Source: a virus
DNA length: 64,000 nucleotides
Virus record (IMG/VR): IMGVR_UViG_3300042691_015010
Coordinates: 1-64,000 of that record
Reading direction: 5' to 3' (one strand)
Shown here: one piece after another, positions 1,179 through 28,806 of the stretch
Layout of the letters: each line of letters starts with the position of its first letter
Numbering within the stretch: the stretch's first letter is position 1
Position numbers and translations under genes: made by a program
Notes under the pieces: model-generated
Told to the model about the DNA's origin: nothing
Seen by the model: only the letters and a program-made list of their open reading frames with translations
The model's database searches: none

Positions 1179-1254
1179 GGGAGTATAGTCAAACGGTTAA
1201 GACAGCGGACTTTTAATCCGTCAGGTCAGGGTTCGAATCCCTGTGCTCCCACCA
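1179..1254 (+). tRNA. tRNA-Lys (anticodon TTT)
   Basis: The acceptor GGGAGTA pairs with TGCTCCC, with one mismatch-tolerant pair. The anticodon loop is CTTTTAA, the T-arm is CAGGGTTCGAATCCCTG, and CCA is encoded. The CCA end can also pair into the hairpin that follows (see 1252-1387). Confidence 0.95.
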
Positions 1255-1387
1255 TATAAAAACACATTAGTTCTAAGGGTTGTTCCGAAGGTAATTATCT
1301 TCCATGAAGTCCTAGTGTGTTTCTATATGGTAGCAGTGAAGATGTGGCCGAAACGTAAAATGAAGCCAAACCCCTGGCTGTTACCAT
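1252..1387 (+). ncRNA. Structured spacer RNA between tRNA-Lys and tRNA-Asp
   Basis: This gene-free spacer folds in two ways. The arms 1252-1270 and 1312-1330 give an 18-of-19-position stem (one A-C mismatch, one G-U). The arms 1327-1336 and 1378-1387 give a 10-bp stem. The two share 1327-1330, so they cannot both form completely. It contains no plausible ORF and no tRNA fold. It could be a processing signal between tRNAs, or a small stable RNA like the two non-tRNA stable RNAs known from the T4 tRNA cluster. Its function is inferred only from structure. Confidence 0.5.
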
Positions 1388-1560: not shown

Positions 1561-1570
1561 GTTTTTTGTA

Positions 1571-1700
1571 GTTGCTTTATTTGTGTTATTTGTAAGCCAT
1601 GGGTTCGATCAAACCTGAGTAACTATGTACACAAACGGTAAATCCGGCCGGACACTCCGTTGAGCATAGCAAATAGTGCAGATAACACAAATAATGTAAC
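1571..1700 (+). ncRNA. Structured spacer RNA between tRNA-Asn and tRNA-Gln
   Basis: A perfect 13-bp outer stem (1577-1589 with 1682-1694) can be extended by GTT/AAC at 1571-1573 and 1698-1700. Inside it are nested complements: CTATG with CATAG, and ACGG with CCGT flanking a CCGGCCGG palindrome. There is no ORF and no tRNA fold, although a GGTTCGATCAAACC stretch resembles a T-arm. It may be a second stable small RNA or a spacer that positions cleavage of the polycistronic tRNA transcript. The role is inferred. Confidence 0.5.
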
Positions 1701-1703
1701 TGT

Positions 1704-22233: not shown

Positions 22234-22407
22234 ATGTCAAAAAAATCTTTGCAGAAAAAAGTAGCATTACTGAATGAATATATTACAAAAGAACTAGAAC
22301 GTGAAATACAAACTGAAATTACTCAGTTGGAAAAAGAACATGTCACTGCAAAGAACGAAAAGAAGTTTATAAGACCATATTTTAGTAGAAATCATTACTT
22401 TACATAA
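22234..22407 (+). CDS. Small charged coiled-coil protein
   Basis: The 57-residue product is Lys/Glu-rich and helical (KKSLQKKVALLNEYITKELEREIQTEITQLEKEH), with a C-terminal FIRPYFSRNHYFT. AGGAGAG lies 5 nt before the ATG. Its TAA overlaps the ATG of the following nuclease gene, indicating coupling; it may assist that nuclease, but no family is recognised. Confidence 0.58.
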   Translation: MSKKSLQKKVALLNEYITKELEREIQTEITQLEKEHVTAKNEKKFIRPYFSRNHYFT

Positions 22408-23072
22408 TGCGAATATTTGAACACGAAAAGATACCACAACTCCAGTTCGATCTGACAGCCGAAAGCACCGATGTTGGTAGACTGTATACTACACCAGAAG
22501 GTAAAAAGTATAAGTCTATCACTACGGTGCTTTCTAATCACAACAAACAAGCTATCTACGAATGGCGTCAGGCTGTAGGTGAAGAACACGCTAATAAAGT
22601 ATCACGCCGTGCGGCAGATCGTGGCACAAAGGTGCACAAGATTTGTGAAGATTATTTGAAGAATGAAATACCAGAACTAAAGATGCAAATGATGATGCCA
22701 GACTTGAAGGAATTATTCTTCAAGATCAAGCCTCACATTGATGAAAATATTGGTAAGATTTATGCACAAGAGCAAGCACTGTACTCCGACAAGTACCGAA
22801 TTGCTGGTCGTGTAGACTTGATTGCTGAGTGGAATGGTAGATTGTCAGTCATTGACTATAAGACATCTACAAAGCAGAAAGATGAAGAGAATATCCAGAA
22901 CTACTTTATGCAATGTACAGCATATGCACTGATGTTTGCCGAACGAACTGGCATATGGATTGATGATATTGTGGTGCTGATTGCTACAGAAGAAGGACCG
23001 GCACAGGTGTTTGAACGCCAGATCCACGATTATCGGCAACCTCTGATTGAGTATATTGATAAATATGCTTGA
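22407..23072 (+). CDS. PD-(D/E)XK exonuclease, RecB/Cas4/MGME1-like
   Basis: The 221-residue nuclease has H77 in the GTKVHKICEDYL helix, then D137 in GRVDLIAEW, D150-Y-K152 in SVIDYKTS and Q170-x2-AYA (168-175). This order (H, D, D-x-K, QxxxY) is that of RecB-family nucleases such as Cas4 and MGME1. It likely digests single-stranded DNA or flaps during replication or host-DNA degradation. The start overlaps the stop of the preceding small gene. Confidence 0.85.
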   Translation: MRIFEHEKIPQLQFDLTAESTDVGRLYTTPEGKKYKSITTVLSNHNKQAIYEWRQAVGEEHANKVSRRAADRGTKVHKICEDYLKNEIPELKMQMMMPDLKELFFKIKPHIDENIGKIYAQEQALYSDKYRIAGRVDLIAEWNGRLSVIDYKTSTKQKDEENIQNYFMQCTAYALMFAERTGIWIDDIVVLIATEEGPAQVFERQIHDYRQPLIEYIDKYA

Positions 23073-23087
23073 CATATTGGAGGCATC

Positions 23088-23633
23088 ATGCTATCATTCA
23101 AACAACACGTACAATTAGATGAAGGCAATCCACTTGCTAGGCTATACAAACATGCACAAGAAGGACGCCATTATGCTGTATTATCTGCACAAAGAGGTCC
23201 CGATGAGGCAACACCAGAAGAAAATAAGAAACGCCACGAAGAACTAAAGAAGAAATTGACTGCTCAAGGTTATGCTCATAAAGAAGTAGAAGGACATTGG
23301 GAAGGCACAAAAGAGAAGTCTATCATGGTTCATGCTAAAGGAACTGGCGCAGAACATGGTAAACAATTGTATAGTGACATGAAAAAGCATGGATCAGACT
23401 ACAATCAAGATTCCATTTACTATCATGATCACAATGGCGGTAAAGTTCATGGAACAAATGAAACAGGTTGGCCGGGTAAAGGAAAAACACAACCAGTTGG
23501 ACAAATGAGATACAATAGACCAGATTCAGCATATCAAACTGAAACAAAACCTAAATCTGACAAACCTTTGAAACCCGGTAGAACAAGTAAAGGTTCAGCT
23601 AAGTTTACTACGAAATCAAAATATGGTGGATAA
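23088..23633 (+). CDS. Phage protein resembling DUF3293
   Basis: The 181-residue product has HYAVLSAQRGPDEATPEENKKRHEELKKKLTAQGY, GHWEGTKEKSIMVHAKG and DYNQDSIYYHDHNGG. The order 'saqRg...n..r...L...L...G.....G.w.g..E.S......Q.s' resembles DUF3293. The C-terminal third is Lys/Gly/Ser-rich and unstructured. GGAGG is 6 nt before the ATG. Function unknown; possibly a nucleotide- or ADP-ribose-binding enzyme by analogy only. Confidence 0.62.
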   Translation: MLSFKQHVQLDEGNPLARLYKHAQEGRHYAVLSAQRGPDEATPEENKKRHEELKKKLTAQGYAHKEVEGHWEGTKEKSIMVHAKGTGAEHGKQLYSDMKKHGSDYNQDSIYYHDHNGGKVHGTNETGWPGKGKTQPVGQMRYNRPDSAYQTETKPKSDKPLKPGRTSKGSAKFTTKSKYGG

Positions 23634-23827: not shown

Positions 23828-23893
23828 AATTGTTGTAACTCCTTCAAAGTGAAGGCATTCTGGACGGCGGTTCAATTCCGCCCAGCTCCACCA

Positions 23894-23960
23894 GAAACAC
23901 ATAGTTGTCCTAGATGAAAGAAACCTCTGAGGGCTCTAGCGGGGATTGTGTGTTTCTGAT
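23894..23960 (+). other. Intervening segment of the permuted tmRNA precursor
   Basis: These 67 nt separate CCA from the tmRNA 5' end. AGAAACACA (23893-23901) pairs with TGTGTTTCT (23950-23958), so the precursor is closed by a hairpin. In known permuted tmRNAs such a loop is removed by host RNases to leave two paired RNA pieces. CTAG repeats (23910-23913, 23936-23939) can pair inside it. Confidence 0.8.
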
Positions 23961-24044
23961 GGGGCTGACCTGGTTTCGACAGGGTGAGATAGTGGAGAAG
24001 GCAACACAGTAGGCGATGACTGTAAATCAAGCAAATCTATAAAT

Positions 24045-24086
24045 GCAAATGACGCATTTTACGGTGAGGATCGCCTAGCGGCGTAA
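24045..24086 (+). other. tmRNA proteolysis-tag reading frame
   Basis: From the resume codon GCA at 24045 the frame reads ANDAFYGEDRLAA followed by TAA. The AND start and LAA end are those of proteobacterial ssrA tags recognised by ClpXP-type proteases. The centre (AFYGEDR) is unlike the common tags I recall. Confidence 0.88.
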
Positions 24087-24102
24087 CTTACATGGGGTCT
24101 GA

Positions 24103-24140
24103 GGGAGTGTACCTTATTACCAAAACACTCCCACCAATTT
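24103..24140 (+). terminator. Hairpin at the 3' end of the permuted tmRNA
   Basis: GGGAGTG (24103-24109) pairs perfectly with CACTCCC (24126-24132), followed by ACCAATTTTATT. The T tract is weak and interrupted, so this may be a terminator or the terminal helix of the coding piece. Confidence 0.55.
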
Positions 24141-24149
24141 TATTATATT

Positions 24150-24812
24150 ATGCGTGTACATATTTCTAATTATCGTGATCACTGGATTTCTCCATACACA
24201 ATATTGGAGAAAATATTTTTCTGGCGTGAGATTGATTATGATGAACCATTGATTGAAAAATGGTCAGATCGTCTTGTACCTATCAGCCAAGCAATTCAAA
24301 AGTTTCTTGACTTTGTTCGTCCACGTGTAATTGATGTGAAGATTGACTATTGGGATACATGGTCAATGGATCATACATTGGCACCTATTATTCTTCCGAT
24401 GCTCAAACAACTCCGTGATACCAAACATGGTTCACCTATGATTGATATGGAAGATGTGCCCGAATACATGAGAACAACAAGCACTGAAGATTATGATTCA
24501 CAAAAAACATTTGATTTTTATGAAGAGAATGTTCCAGATGGATACGATTTACACAAACGTTGGGAATGGGTACTGAACGAAATGATTTTTGCCTTTGAAC
24601 ATTTAGTAGATGAATCATGGGAAGAAAAATATTACTCTGGTGTAATTGATACGAAGTTCGTTACCGACCCAAATAATCCAAAAATATCAACAATGGAAGA
24701 TGGTCCTAATCACACATACAAATGTGATTATGAAGGTATGTTCAAAGTATACGAACGTATGGACAACGGATTCCGTCTATTCGGCAAATATTTCCGTAAC
24801 CTCTGGGACTAA
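24150..24812 (+). CDS. Conserved T4-like phage protein of unknown function
   Basis: The 220-residue acidic, Trp/Tyr-rich protein contains IDYWDTWSMDHTLAPIILPMLKQLRDTKHGSP and HKRWEWVLNEMIFAFEHL. These two blocks are strongly conserved in a hypothetical protein shared by T4-like marine phages. It has no signal peptide or membrane span. No ribosome binding site is obvious before the ATG, which follows the tmRNA hairpin directly. Confidence 0.68.
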   Translation: MRVHISNYRDHWISPYTILEKIFFWREIDYDEPLIEKWSDRLVPISQAIQKFLDFVRPRVIDVKIDYWDTWSMDHTLAPIILPMLKQLRDTKHGSPMIDMEDVPEYMRTTSTEDYDSQKTFDFYEENVPDGYDLHKRWEWVLNEMIFAFEHLVDESWEEKYYSGVIDTKFVTDPNNPKISTMEDGPNHTYKCDYEGMFKVYERMDNGFRLFGKYFRNLWD

Positions 24813-25200: not shown

Positions 25201-25752
25201 ATGCGTTACATAACACTATTACTTTGTAGTATCTTTGCAGTATTTGTATTATACGTAGGACATGCAGCAGCAAATATTCGTGTGCCAGTTACACCGCATG
25301 TACAACTGGAAGATTTATCGCCTCATGCACGTGCAGAGGTAGAATGCCTTGCACAGAACATGTATTTTGAAGCAGGTAAAGAACCAAAACTTGGACAACT
25401 TGCCGTAGCATTTGTCACACACAATAGAATGCAATCAGGTATGTTTCCTGATTCTTATTGTGGCGTAGTAAAACAAAAAGCGGAAGGTGTATGTCAGTTT
25501 TCATGGTACTGCGACAAGAGAGCAAAAGGTATGATTGATCGCAACATCTTGACAACAGAGAGCAATCCAGTGTATAATAATCTTACTGACTTGGCATTGC
25601 GCTTTTACCTATACACTGAAACATTCAAAGATCCAACAAAGGGTGCATTGTTCTTTCATGCTGACTATGTGAAGCCAACATGGAGTAACATAAAACACAC
25701 GGTACAAATAGGTAGGCACATTTTTTATAACAAGGTAAAAAGAAGCACATGA
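25201..25752 (+). CDS. SleB-like cell wall hydrolase (putative endolysin)
   Basis: The 183-residue protein has an N-terminal hydrophobic segment (LLLCSIFAVFVLYVGHAAA) that could be a signal peptide or signal anchor. The catalytic domain has ECLAQNMYFEAGKEP (E57 is the likely catalytic Glu), GQLAVAFVTHNR, DSYCGVV and CQFSWYCD, the motifs of the SleB/CwlJ hydrolase family. It would cut peptidoglycan, probably as the lysis enzyme. AGGAG lies 8 nt before the ATG. A consensus promoter lies inside its 3' half. Confidence 0.85.
   Translation: MRYITLLLCSIFAVFVLYVGHAAANIRVPVTPHVQLEDLSPHARAEVECLAQNMYFEAGKEPKLGQLAVAFVTHNRMQSGMFPDSYCGVVKQKAEGVCQFSWYCDKRAKGMIDRNILTTESNPVYNNLTDLALRFYLYTETFKDPTKGALFFHADYVKPTWSNIKHTVQIGRHIFYNKVKRST
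25549..25578 (+). promoter_or_regulatory. Consensus promoter inside the hydrolase gene
   Basis: TTGACA at 25549-25554 and TATAAT at 25573-25578 are 18 bp apart, with TG directly before the -10 box. It could start transcription of the downstream genes from 25782 to gp33/gp59 independently of the hydrolase. Confidence 0.65.
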
Positions 25753-27936: not shown

Positions 27937-28806
27937 ATGTCCGACTTTTCAAGTCTCAAGCGTAATCGCAACTCTTTTGATAAGCTAACAAAAGCGATTG
28001 AATCAATCAATACCAATACAGAAGGTGGCGGCTCTAAAGGTGATGATCGTTTCTGGTCACCTGAAGTAGACAAAGCTGGCAACGGTATGGCAGTAATTCG
28101 TTTTCTTCCAGGTCCTGCTGCTGATGGTGATGATGCACTTCCTTGGGTTCGTGTCTTTGACCACGGCTTTCAAGGTCCAGGTGGTTGGTATATTGAAAAC
28201 TCTTTGACTACCATCAATCAAAAAGATCCAGTATCAGAACACAATTCAATTTTGTGGAACTCTGGTATTGAAGCAAACAAAGAAATTGCACGTAAACAGA
28301 AACGCCGTCTCCATTACATTGCTAATGTTCTAATTGTTTCTGACCCTAAACATCCAGAGAACGAAGGTCAAGTTCGTCTGTACAAGTTTGGTAAGAAAAT
28401 CTTTGATAAGATTACTGAAGCAATGAATCCACAATTTGAAGATGAAAAGGCAATCAATCCTTTTGACTTCTGGGAAGGTGCTAACTTCAAAATCAAGATT
28501 CGTCAAGTTGAAGGCTATCGTAACTATGACAAGTCTGAGTTTGAATCTGCTACTGCACTGTTTGATGGTGATGATGCTAAACTTGAAGCATTATGGAAAA
28601 AAGAATATTCACTAAAAGATTTTCTTGATCCAAAACACTTCAAGCCATATGATGTATTGAAAGCAAAACTTGACAAGGTGCTTGGTCTAGATGGTGCTGC
28701 TCCTGTTGCTAAAACAAAAGCAATTGATGATGGCTTTGTACCAAAGACTTCACCTGATTTAGATGATGATGAACTAGACTACTTCAAGTCTTTAGCAGAG
28801 GACTGA
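27937..28806 (+). CDS. 32: Single-stranded DNA-binding protein gp32
   Basis: The 289-residue protein has the basic N-terminal cooperative motif (LKRNRNSF), then DRFWSPEVDKAGNGMAVIRFLPGP, WYIENSLTT and GQVRLYKFGKKIFDKI, the conserved OB-fold core of gp32. The C-terminal tail is acidic (SPDLDDDELDYFKSLAED), as needed for contacts with gp59 and the polymerase. The zinc-binding Cys/His set of T4 gp32 is missing: there are no cysteines. It has its own promoter and is followed by a terminator. Confidence 0.93.
   Translation: MSDFSSLKRNRNSFDKLTKAIESINTNTEGGGSKGDDRFWSPEVDKAGNGMAVIRFLPGPAADGDDALPWVRVFDHGFQGPGGWYIENSLTTINQKDPVSEHNSILWNSGIEANKEIARKQKRRLHYIANVLIVSDPKHPENEGQVRLYKFGKKIFDKITEAMNPQFEDEKAINPFDFWEGANFKIKIRQVEGYRNYDKSEFESATALFDGDDAKLEALWKKEYSLKDFLDPKHFKPYDVLKAKLDKVLGLDGAAPVAKTKAIDDGFVPKTSPDLDDDELDYFKSLAED

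What the first reader, a model, noticed from the sequence alone, without database searches (positions are those of the whole stretch)
23830..24132. Circularly permuted, two-piece tmRNA carried by a phage, with the tag ANDAFYGEDRLAA
The acceptor half (T-arm and CAGCTCCACCA, ending 23893) precedes the 5' half (GGGGCTGACC from 23961), and the two ends pair into a 7-bp acceptor stem. The 67-nt segment between them is closed by a hairpin. A complete tag frame follows. Permuted tmRNA is established in alphaproteobacteria, cyanobacteria and some betaproteobacteria. On a lytic-type phage it implies that the phage supplies its own ribosome rescue and can mark proteins with its own tag, perhaps to free ribosomes on host mRNA cut during infection. 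The tag centre looks unusual and may alter protease choice.
Basis: partly seen in the sequence, partly recalled or inferred. Interest (0 to 1): 0.9.

Follow-up and report, generated by a model that had tools for sequence, protein, structure and literature searches.

The report
Phage two-piece tmRNA with modular spacer
A T4-like virus of bacteria carries a genuine two-piece version of the RNA that rescues stuck ribosomes, which is already known in other phages, but the throw-away RNA between its two pieces is a conserved, swappable hairpin that also sits behind tRNAs in many other phages and appears to be undescribed.

Summary
Observation confirmed: 23831-24135 is a circularly permuted tmRNA gene (RF04321 151.6 bits, RF01850 146.5 bits; ARAGORN tag ANDAFYGEDRLAA). 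The acceptor piece ends in an encoded CCA at 23893, a 67-nt intervening segment follows, and the coding piece starts at 23961. It has the alanine-identity G3·U70 pair. The record is a T4-like myophage fragment with 23 tRNAs and no detectable SmpB. Two-piece tmRNA in phages is already published (PMC9004378), so the gene itself is a new member of a known kind. It is an old phage locus: 61 of 112 permuted-tmRNA loci examined sit in a matching exonuclease/endolysin neighbourhood, while tags are exchanged between relatives. The surprise is the intervening segment. Its hairpin cap (element A) has a near-invariant 20-nt core (2.6% mean pairwise difference, against 22% in the acceptor/T-arm) inside stems with 8 compensatory pairs. 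It was absent from Rfam, INPHARED and 84,980 bacterial and archaeal species genomes. The same cap also follows tRNA CCA ends. It belongs to a wider set of post-CCA hairpins with swappable caps (120+ viral contigs); the window has a second copy behind tRNA-Lys. Their function (3'-end processing, or release of a small RNA) is inferred, not shown.

The parts
23829..23893 (+). tmRNA acceptor piece (5' strand of the tRNA-like/P2 helix, T-arm, acceptor 3' strand CAGCTCC-ACCA); 5' end approximate
   Evidence: RF04321 and RF01850 alignments; sequence
23894..23960 (+). intervening segment (67 nt) between the two mature pieces, folded as one long hairpin
23895..23955 (+). element A: post-CCA hairpin, P1 + P2 with bulged pyrimidine and GxG mismatch + P3
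   Evidence: model R1 89.2 bits, single copy in the record; covariation
23915..23934 (+). near-invariant cap core TGAAAGAAACCTCTGAGGGC
23961..24135 (+). tmRNA coding piece (3' end approximate)
24045..24086 (+). tag reading frame ANDAFYGEDRLAA + TAA, resume codon GCA
   Evidence: ARAGORN, sequence
24101..24130 (+). terminal helix of the coding piece GGGAGTG...CACTCCC
   Evidence: RF01850 alignment, fold
22407..23072 (+). exonuclease gene (phrog_298) upstream, conserved neighbour of the tmRNA
23088..23633 (+). SAM-dependent methyltransferase-like gene (phrog_2226)
24150..24812 (+). phrog_11543 gene directly downstream (unknown function)
25201..25752 (+). endolysin gene (phrog_938), conserved downstream neighbour
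27937..28806 (+). single-strand DNA-binding protein gp32-like (phrog_224), conserved downstream neighbour
1252..1330 (+). second post-CCA hairpin, behind tRNA-Lys(TTT): CCATATAAAAACACATTAG..cap..CTAGTGTGTTTCTATATGG

Best explanation
The locus is a working-form, circularly permuted (beta-type) tmRNA gene of a T4-like myophage. Inferred mechanism: one transcript folds so that the intervening segment extends the acceptor stem. RNase P cuts before G23961 and a 3' nuclease frees CCA at 23893, giving a two-piece tmRNA. It is charged by host AlaRS (G3·U70) and, with host SmpB, rescues stalled ribosomes during infection, adding ANDAFYGEDRLAA for ClpXP-type degradation. The excised segment is a conserved post-CCA hairpin. 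Its P1 most likely serves as a maturation element for the preceding CCA end, and its cap (element A) is a separately conserved RNA module exchanged between phages. Shown: gene anatomy, conserved synteny, hairpin covariation, cap conservation and exchange. Inferred: processing, charging, tagging, and any function of the cap.
For: Covariance models and ARAGORN. Acceptor stem, CCA, G3·U70 and tag frame in the sequence. Conserved neighbourhood in 61 of 112 loci including Pelagibacter phage Mosig. Tag and intervening-segment type change between near relatives while the tmRNA persists. Element A: 463 of 463 pair cells standard, 8 pairs with compensatory changes; core 2.6% vs 22% mean pairwise difference for the acceptor/T-arm; flank-only patterns return almost only this core; same cap after tRNA-Thr CCA; cap of the L017 tmRNA segment shared with a tRNA-Ile trailer. 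No SmpB in the phage.
Against: No expression or end-mapping data. The host is unknown. Pseudoknots of the coding piece were not tested separately. The record is a 70-kb fragment, so SmpB could lie elsewhere. Near-identity of the core could partly reflect recent spread rather than constraint.
Confidence: 0.85

Rival explanations
1. The tmRNA-like gene is a decaying relic of a host gene picked up by the phage and does nothing.
For: Some tmRNA fragments in prophages come from imprecise excision (PMC9004378); host source unknown.
Against: Complete stems, CCA, G3·U70 and stop-terminated LAA tag; the same syntenic place in divergent phages; no bacterial genome matched the 5'-half pattern.
Confidence: 0.05
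2. The conserved cap in the intervening segment is a self-cleaving ribozyme that frees the CCA end, as theta ribozymes are proposed to do behind gut-phage tRNAs.
For: It starts 0-1 nt after CCA in tmRNA and tRNA contexts; near-invariant core with bulge and mismatch; theta ribozymes sit exactly at tRNA 3' ends (PMC10879173).
Against: No Rfam ribozyme model matches, even at E<=5. Caps at the equivalent position are extremely diverse (18 clusters and 45 singletons), which does not fit one catalytic core.
Confidence: 0.1
3. The hairpins are small palindromic mobile DNA elements (MITE/REP-like) that insert behind CCA, with the caps as passengers.
For: Inverted-repeat ends CCATAT..ATATGG, several copies in some contigs, cap mosaicism, about a quarter not next to a recognised tRNA.
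Against: Compensatory and G-U changes in P1, P2 and cap stems; exact placement at CCA; inside the tmRNA the insertion point is also a maturation point; no transposase or target duplication examined.
Confidence: 0.2
4. The excised segment is a trans-acting phage small RNA whose cap is the active part and whose P1 only protects its ends.
For: Cap conserved more than the tmRNA around it; one copy of A per genome in records searched; it relocates to tRNA trailers.
Against: No target or protein partner known; caps are many and different.
Confidence: 0.25

Closest known systems
Permuted two-piece tmRNA (Rfam RF04321; beta subtype RF01850)
   Same: Piece order, T-arm, acceptor stem, P2 helix, tag frame; best scores to these models
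   Different: Phage-borne; CCA encoded; long structured intervening segment with cap element A; tag ANDAFYGEDRLAA
[quoted passage not shown]
   Same: Two-piece tmRNA in T4-like phage; in Mosig the same exonuclease-tmRNA order
   Different: Alpha-type by Rfam in Mosig, different tag (GEDNFALAA); Melnitz has a glutamine riboswitch (PMC9004378); none found here
tmRNA of Menderavirus (Stenotrophomonas) and Samunavirus (Pseudomonas) phages
   Same: Permuted tmRNA in cultured tailed phages, RLAA/RIAA-type tags
   Different: No element A or B seen in the loci read; phage kinship not tested; Samunavirus intervening segment is 112 nt
Theta (HDV-like) ribozymes behind gut-phage tRNAs (PMC10879173)
   Same: Structured RNA placed exactly at the 3' end of phage tRNAs, proposed to process the trailer
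   Different: No HDV-family match here; the constant part is an outer stem that pairs with CCA, and the caps vary

Membership tests
Permuted tmRNA (RF04321) | covariance-model score above gathering with acceptor half before 5' half | tested here: met
   151.6 bits vs 47
Permuted tmRNA (RF04321) | alanine-type acceptor stem with G3·U70 and CCA | tested here: met
   sequence 23961-23967 / 23883-23893
Permuted tmRNA (RF04321) | tag reading frame ending in a stop after LAA-type residues | tested here: met
   24045-24086 ANDAFYGEDRLAA
Permuted tmRNA (RF04321) | two separate mature RNAs made by cleavage | not testable with these tools
   needs RNA ends
Permuted tmRNA (RF04321) | works with SmpB | not testable with these tools
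   no SmpB in the phage record; host unknown
Betaproteobacterial tmRNA (RF01850) | score above gathering and above the alpha model | tested here: met
   146.5 bits vs gathering 84; alpha 48.7, below its 50
Known Rfam RNA (ribozymes, riboswitches) for the intervening segment | any Rfam match over 23894-23960 other than tmRNA | tested here: not met
   no such match at E<=5
Post-CCA hairpin family (defined here) | hairpin starting 0-1 nt after CCA with P1 of the ARYRYAY type and compensatory pairing | tested here: met
Post-CCA hairpin family (defined here) | perfect CCA:UGG pairing at the base of P1 | tested here: not met
   Met in the tRNA trailers found, including window 1252-1330. In the tmRNA segment the base is ACCA/UGAU, with one C-A mismatch.

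The most novel reading that the evidence does not exclude
The intervening segment belongs to an undescribed, widespread family of phage RNA hairpins that begin at the CCA of tRNAs and two-piece tmRNAs, share a conserved outer stem that caps the CCA end, and carry many exchangeable, separately conserved RNA caps that act in 3'-end maturation and/or are released as small RNAs.
Probability: 0.5. Interest if true: 0.8.

Novelty: new variant of a known kind. Interest (0 to 1): 0.58.

Why it matters
[quoted passage not shown] It also points to a structured RNA module, more conserved than the tmRNA around it, that links tmRNA and tRNA maturation in phages. If the hairpins are processing elements or small RNAs, phage tRNA arrays hold a large uncharted set of RNAs that can be tested directly.

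Tried and rejected
Riboswitch or known ribozyme in the intervening segment: no Rfam match. Bacterial origin by exact signature: neither element A nor a 5'-half signature occurs in the 84,980-species genome set, so no host could be named. Cultured-phage copies of element A, element B or the tRNA-Lys hairpin: only chance-level BLAST hits. SmpB on the phage: none. Relatives by genome kinship are not available for a virus record. The 'position 70 = T' tally was built into the search pattern and is not used as evidence. A first attempt to add tmRNA segments to the cap clustering failed (0 included), so cap sharing between tmRNA and tRNA was shown on named cases instead.

Full report
Observation. 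ARAGORN calls a permuted tmRNA with tag ANDAFYGEDRLAA. Rfam gives RF04321 tmRNA_permuted 151.6 bits and RF01850 beta_tmRNA 146.5 bits, full length, acceptor half first. The alpha model stays just below its cut-off (48.7 vs 50 bits). The acceptor stem is 7 bp with a G3·U70 pair, and CCA is encoded. The 67-nt segment folds into one hairpin at -23.4 kcal/mol, z -4.2. In the fold of the whole precursor that hairpin continues the acceptor stem.

Host genome. The window is part of a 70,001-base IMG/VR record. Structural and replication proteins (baseplate wedge, tail tube cap, gp32-like SSB) are T4-like, and a tail protein is about 25% identical to those of Pelagibacter, Vibrio and cyanobacterial myophages. 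It has 23 tRNAs. SmpB is absent from this record and from 13 further permuted-tmRNA phage records, so the RNA would have to use host SmpB. These are fragments, so this is not proof of absence. I did not test for integrase, so 'lytic-type' rests on T4-like kinship.

Comparative setting. One pattern scan of viral contigs returned 67 loci, nearly all with a permuted tmRNA. Pelagibacter phage Mosig shares the exonuclease-tmRNA order. The gene is therefore a long-standing part of this phage lineage. Tags switch between near relatives: window ANDAFYGEDRLAA, L097 ANDDYYALAA (gp32 91% identical), L033/L044 ANDELYALAA. More distant L020 has the identical tag but another intervening segment. On a gp32 tree of 35 rows the segment type changes at least 11 times. 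The locus is a mosaic of acceptor, spacer and coding modules.

Prior art. Two-piece tmRNA in phages is published: 53 of 133 unique phage tmRNAs in PMC9004378. PMC11915505 lists 79 bacteriophage tmRNAs and defines RF04321. Cultured Stenotrophomonas and Pseudomonas phages carry permuted genes too, some annotated, some not. The gene is thus a new member of a known kind.

The intervening segment. The core TGAAAGAAACCTCTGAGGGC (23915-23934) occurs in 29 viral contigs, and a one-base variant in 19. To avoid circular reasoning I searched with flanks or stem positions only, leaving the 20 core bases free. A flank pattern gave 41 held instances with only two core variants, one base apart. A wider stem-only pattern gave 46 contigs, of which 45 have the core. 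The third variant, in L149, differs only in the triloop of the small P3 hairpin; the one other hit is unrelated. Among 32 distinct flank-selected loci the core differs by 2.6% on average, the acceptor/T-arm by 22%. In an ungapped alignment of 22 distinct elements, 463 of 463 pair cells are standard, 8 pairs show changes on both sides, and slid controls give 0 or 1 such pair. A second type, B, found in near relatives of this phage, also shows compensatory pairs. Neither matches Rfam. Element A was not found in 84,980 bacterial and archaeal species genomes or, above chance level, in INPHARED.

Not confined to tmRNA. In L083, L091, L077, L098 and L149 element A stands directly behind a tRNA CCA (L083 and L149 called tRNA-Thr), and in L149 it is followed by a protein gene rather than the tmRNA. 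Element B stands between tmRNA and tRNA-Gly in L050, and upstream of tRNA-Arg in L101, a 352-kb contig that has its own permuted tmRNA. A scan over CCA-ending tRNAs found 32 of 223 with a trailer hairpin against 13.1 expected. The strongest share one form, CCAUAU..ARYRYAY / ..AUAUGG, in which CCA itself is paired. The window's tRNA-Lys has one at 1252-1330, with the same arms as tRNA-Lys of L101 but a different cap. Of 91 instances held, 64 start at the CCA of a called tRNA and 3 more at a weakly scored one; nearly all the rest lie within 3 kb of tRNAs. The unconstrained pair 7 is formed in 40 of 42 distinct arm pairs against 19.1 in shuffles. Caps form 18 recurrent clusters and 45 singletons, and one cap can follow different tRNAs. 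The cap of the tmRNA segment in L017 recurs behind tRNA-Ile in L164, with a stem change in L160 that is compensatory. About half of 68 distinct tmRNA segments begin with the same ARYRYAY arm, against 0.8% background; this set is partly biased by the element-A searches.

Mechanism. Best supported: a functional two-piece tmRNA gene whose spacer hairpin holds the two halves together and marks the CCA end for processing. The cap is a separate RNA module. Cleavage by RNase P and a 3' nuclease, charging by AlaRS, SmpB dependence and ClpXP degradation follow from established tmRNA biology (PMC3985003) and were not tested here. That review gives ALAA as the tag end ClpX and ClpA recognise; here the first A is replaced by R (RLAA), so a shift in protease preference is possible but only inferred.

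Verdict. The claim of a permuted phage tmRNA is right and ordinary in kind. Its spacer is the part that deserves follow-up.

Noticed in passing
window 1252-1330; L151-L230: Post-CCA hairpins with shared arms and exchangeable caps behind tRNAs (Lys-TTT, Gln-TTG, Leu-TAG, Glu-TTC most often) in over 120 viral contigs.
   Followed up: partly
window 1561-1703; L101 4723-4791: The spacer between tRNA-Asn and tRNA-Gln has a 69-nt stretch 87% identical to a spacer in a 352-kb viral contig and folds strongly: another shared structured RNA.
   Followed up: no
L069, L070, L071 (Samunavirus, Pseudomonas aeruginosa phages): Permuted tmRNA with tag ANDTSFDVRLAA, not annotated in these records; the hosts are, from general knowledge, bacteria with one-piece tmRNA.
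   Followed up: partly
L072 2955-3280 (Stenotrophomonas phage BUCTxx99): Permuted tmRNA with only about 4 nt (CTAC) between CCA and GGGG, not annotated.
   Followed up: no
L148 973-1393 (Xanthomonas phage XacN1): Unannotated permuted tmRNA with tag ANANTFDYALAA in a 385-kb phage.
   Followed up: no
L091 and L149, intervening segments of the tmRNA: Instead of a structured cap the segment seems to hold a short reading frame (about 34 and 24 codons) with a start codon, behind a ribosome-binding-like AAGGAG in L091.
   Followed up: no
L007, L014, L018, L027, L106, L110: Phage permuted tmRNAs with very long predicted tags (28-31 residues).
   Followed up: no
L012, L051 and L035: A 33-nt stretch of the L035 tmRNA intervening segment recurs downstream of the tmRNA in L012 and L051, a further relocated cap.
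   Followed up: no
L073 (Pelagibacter phage Mosig) intervening segment: GTCCTAGATGAAGGAAA resembles the 5' side of element A and may be a deletion derivative.
   Followed up: no
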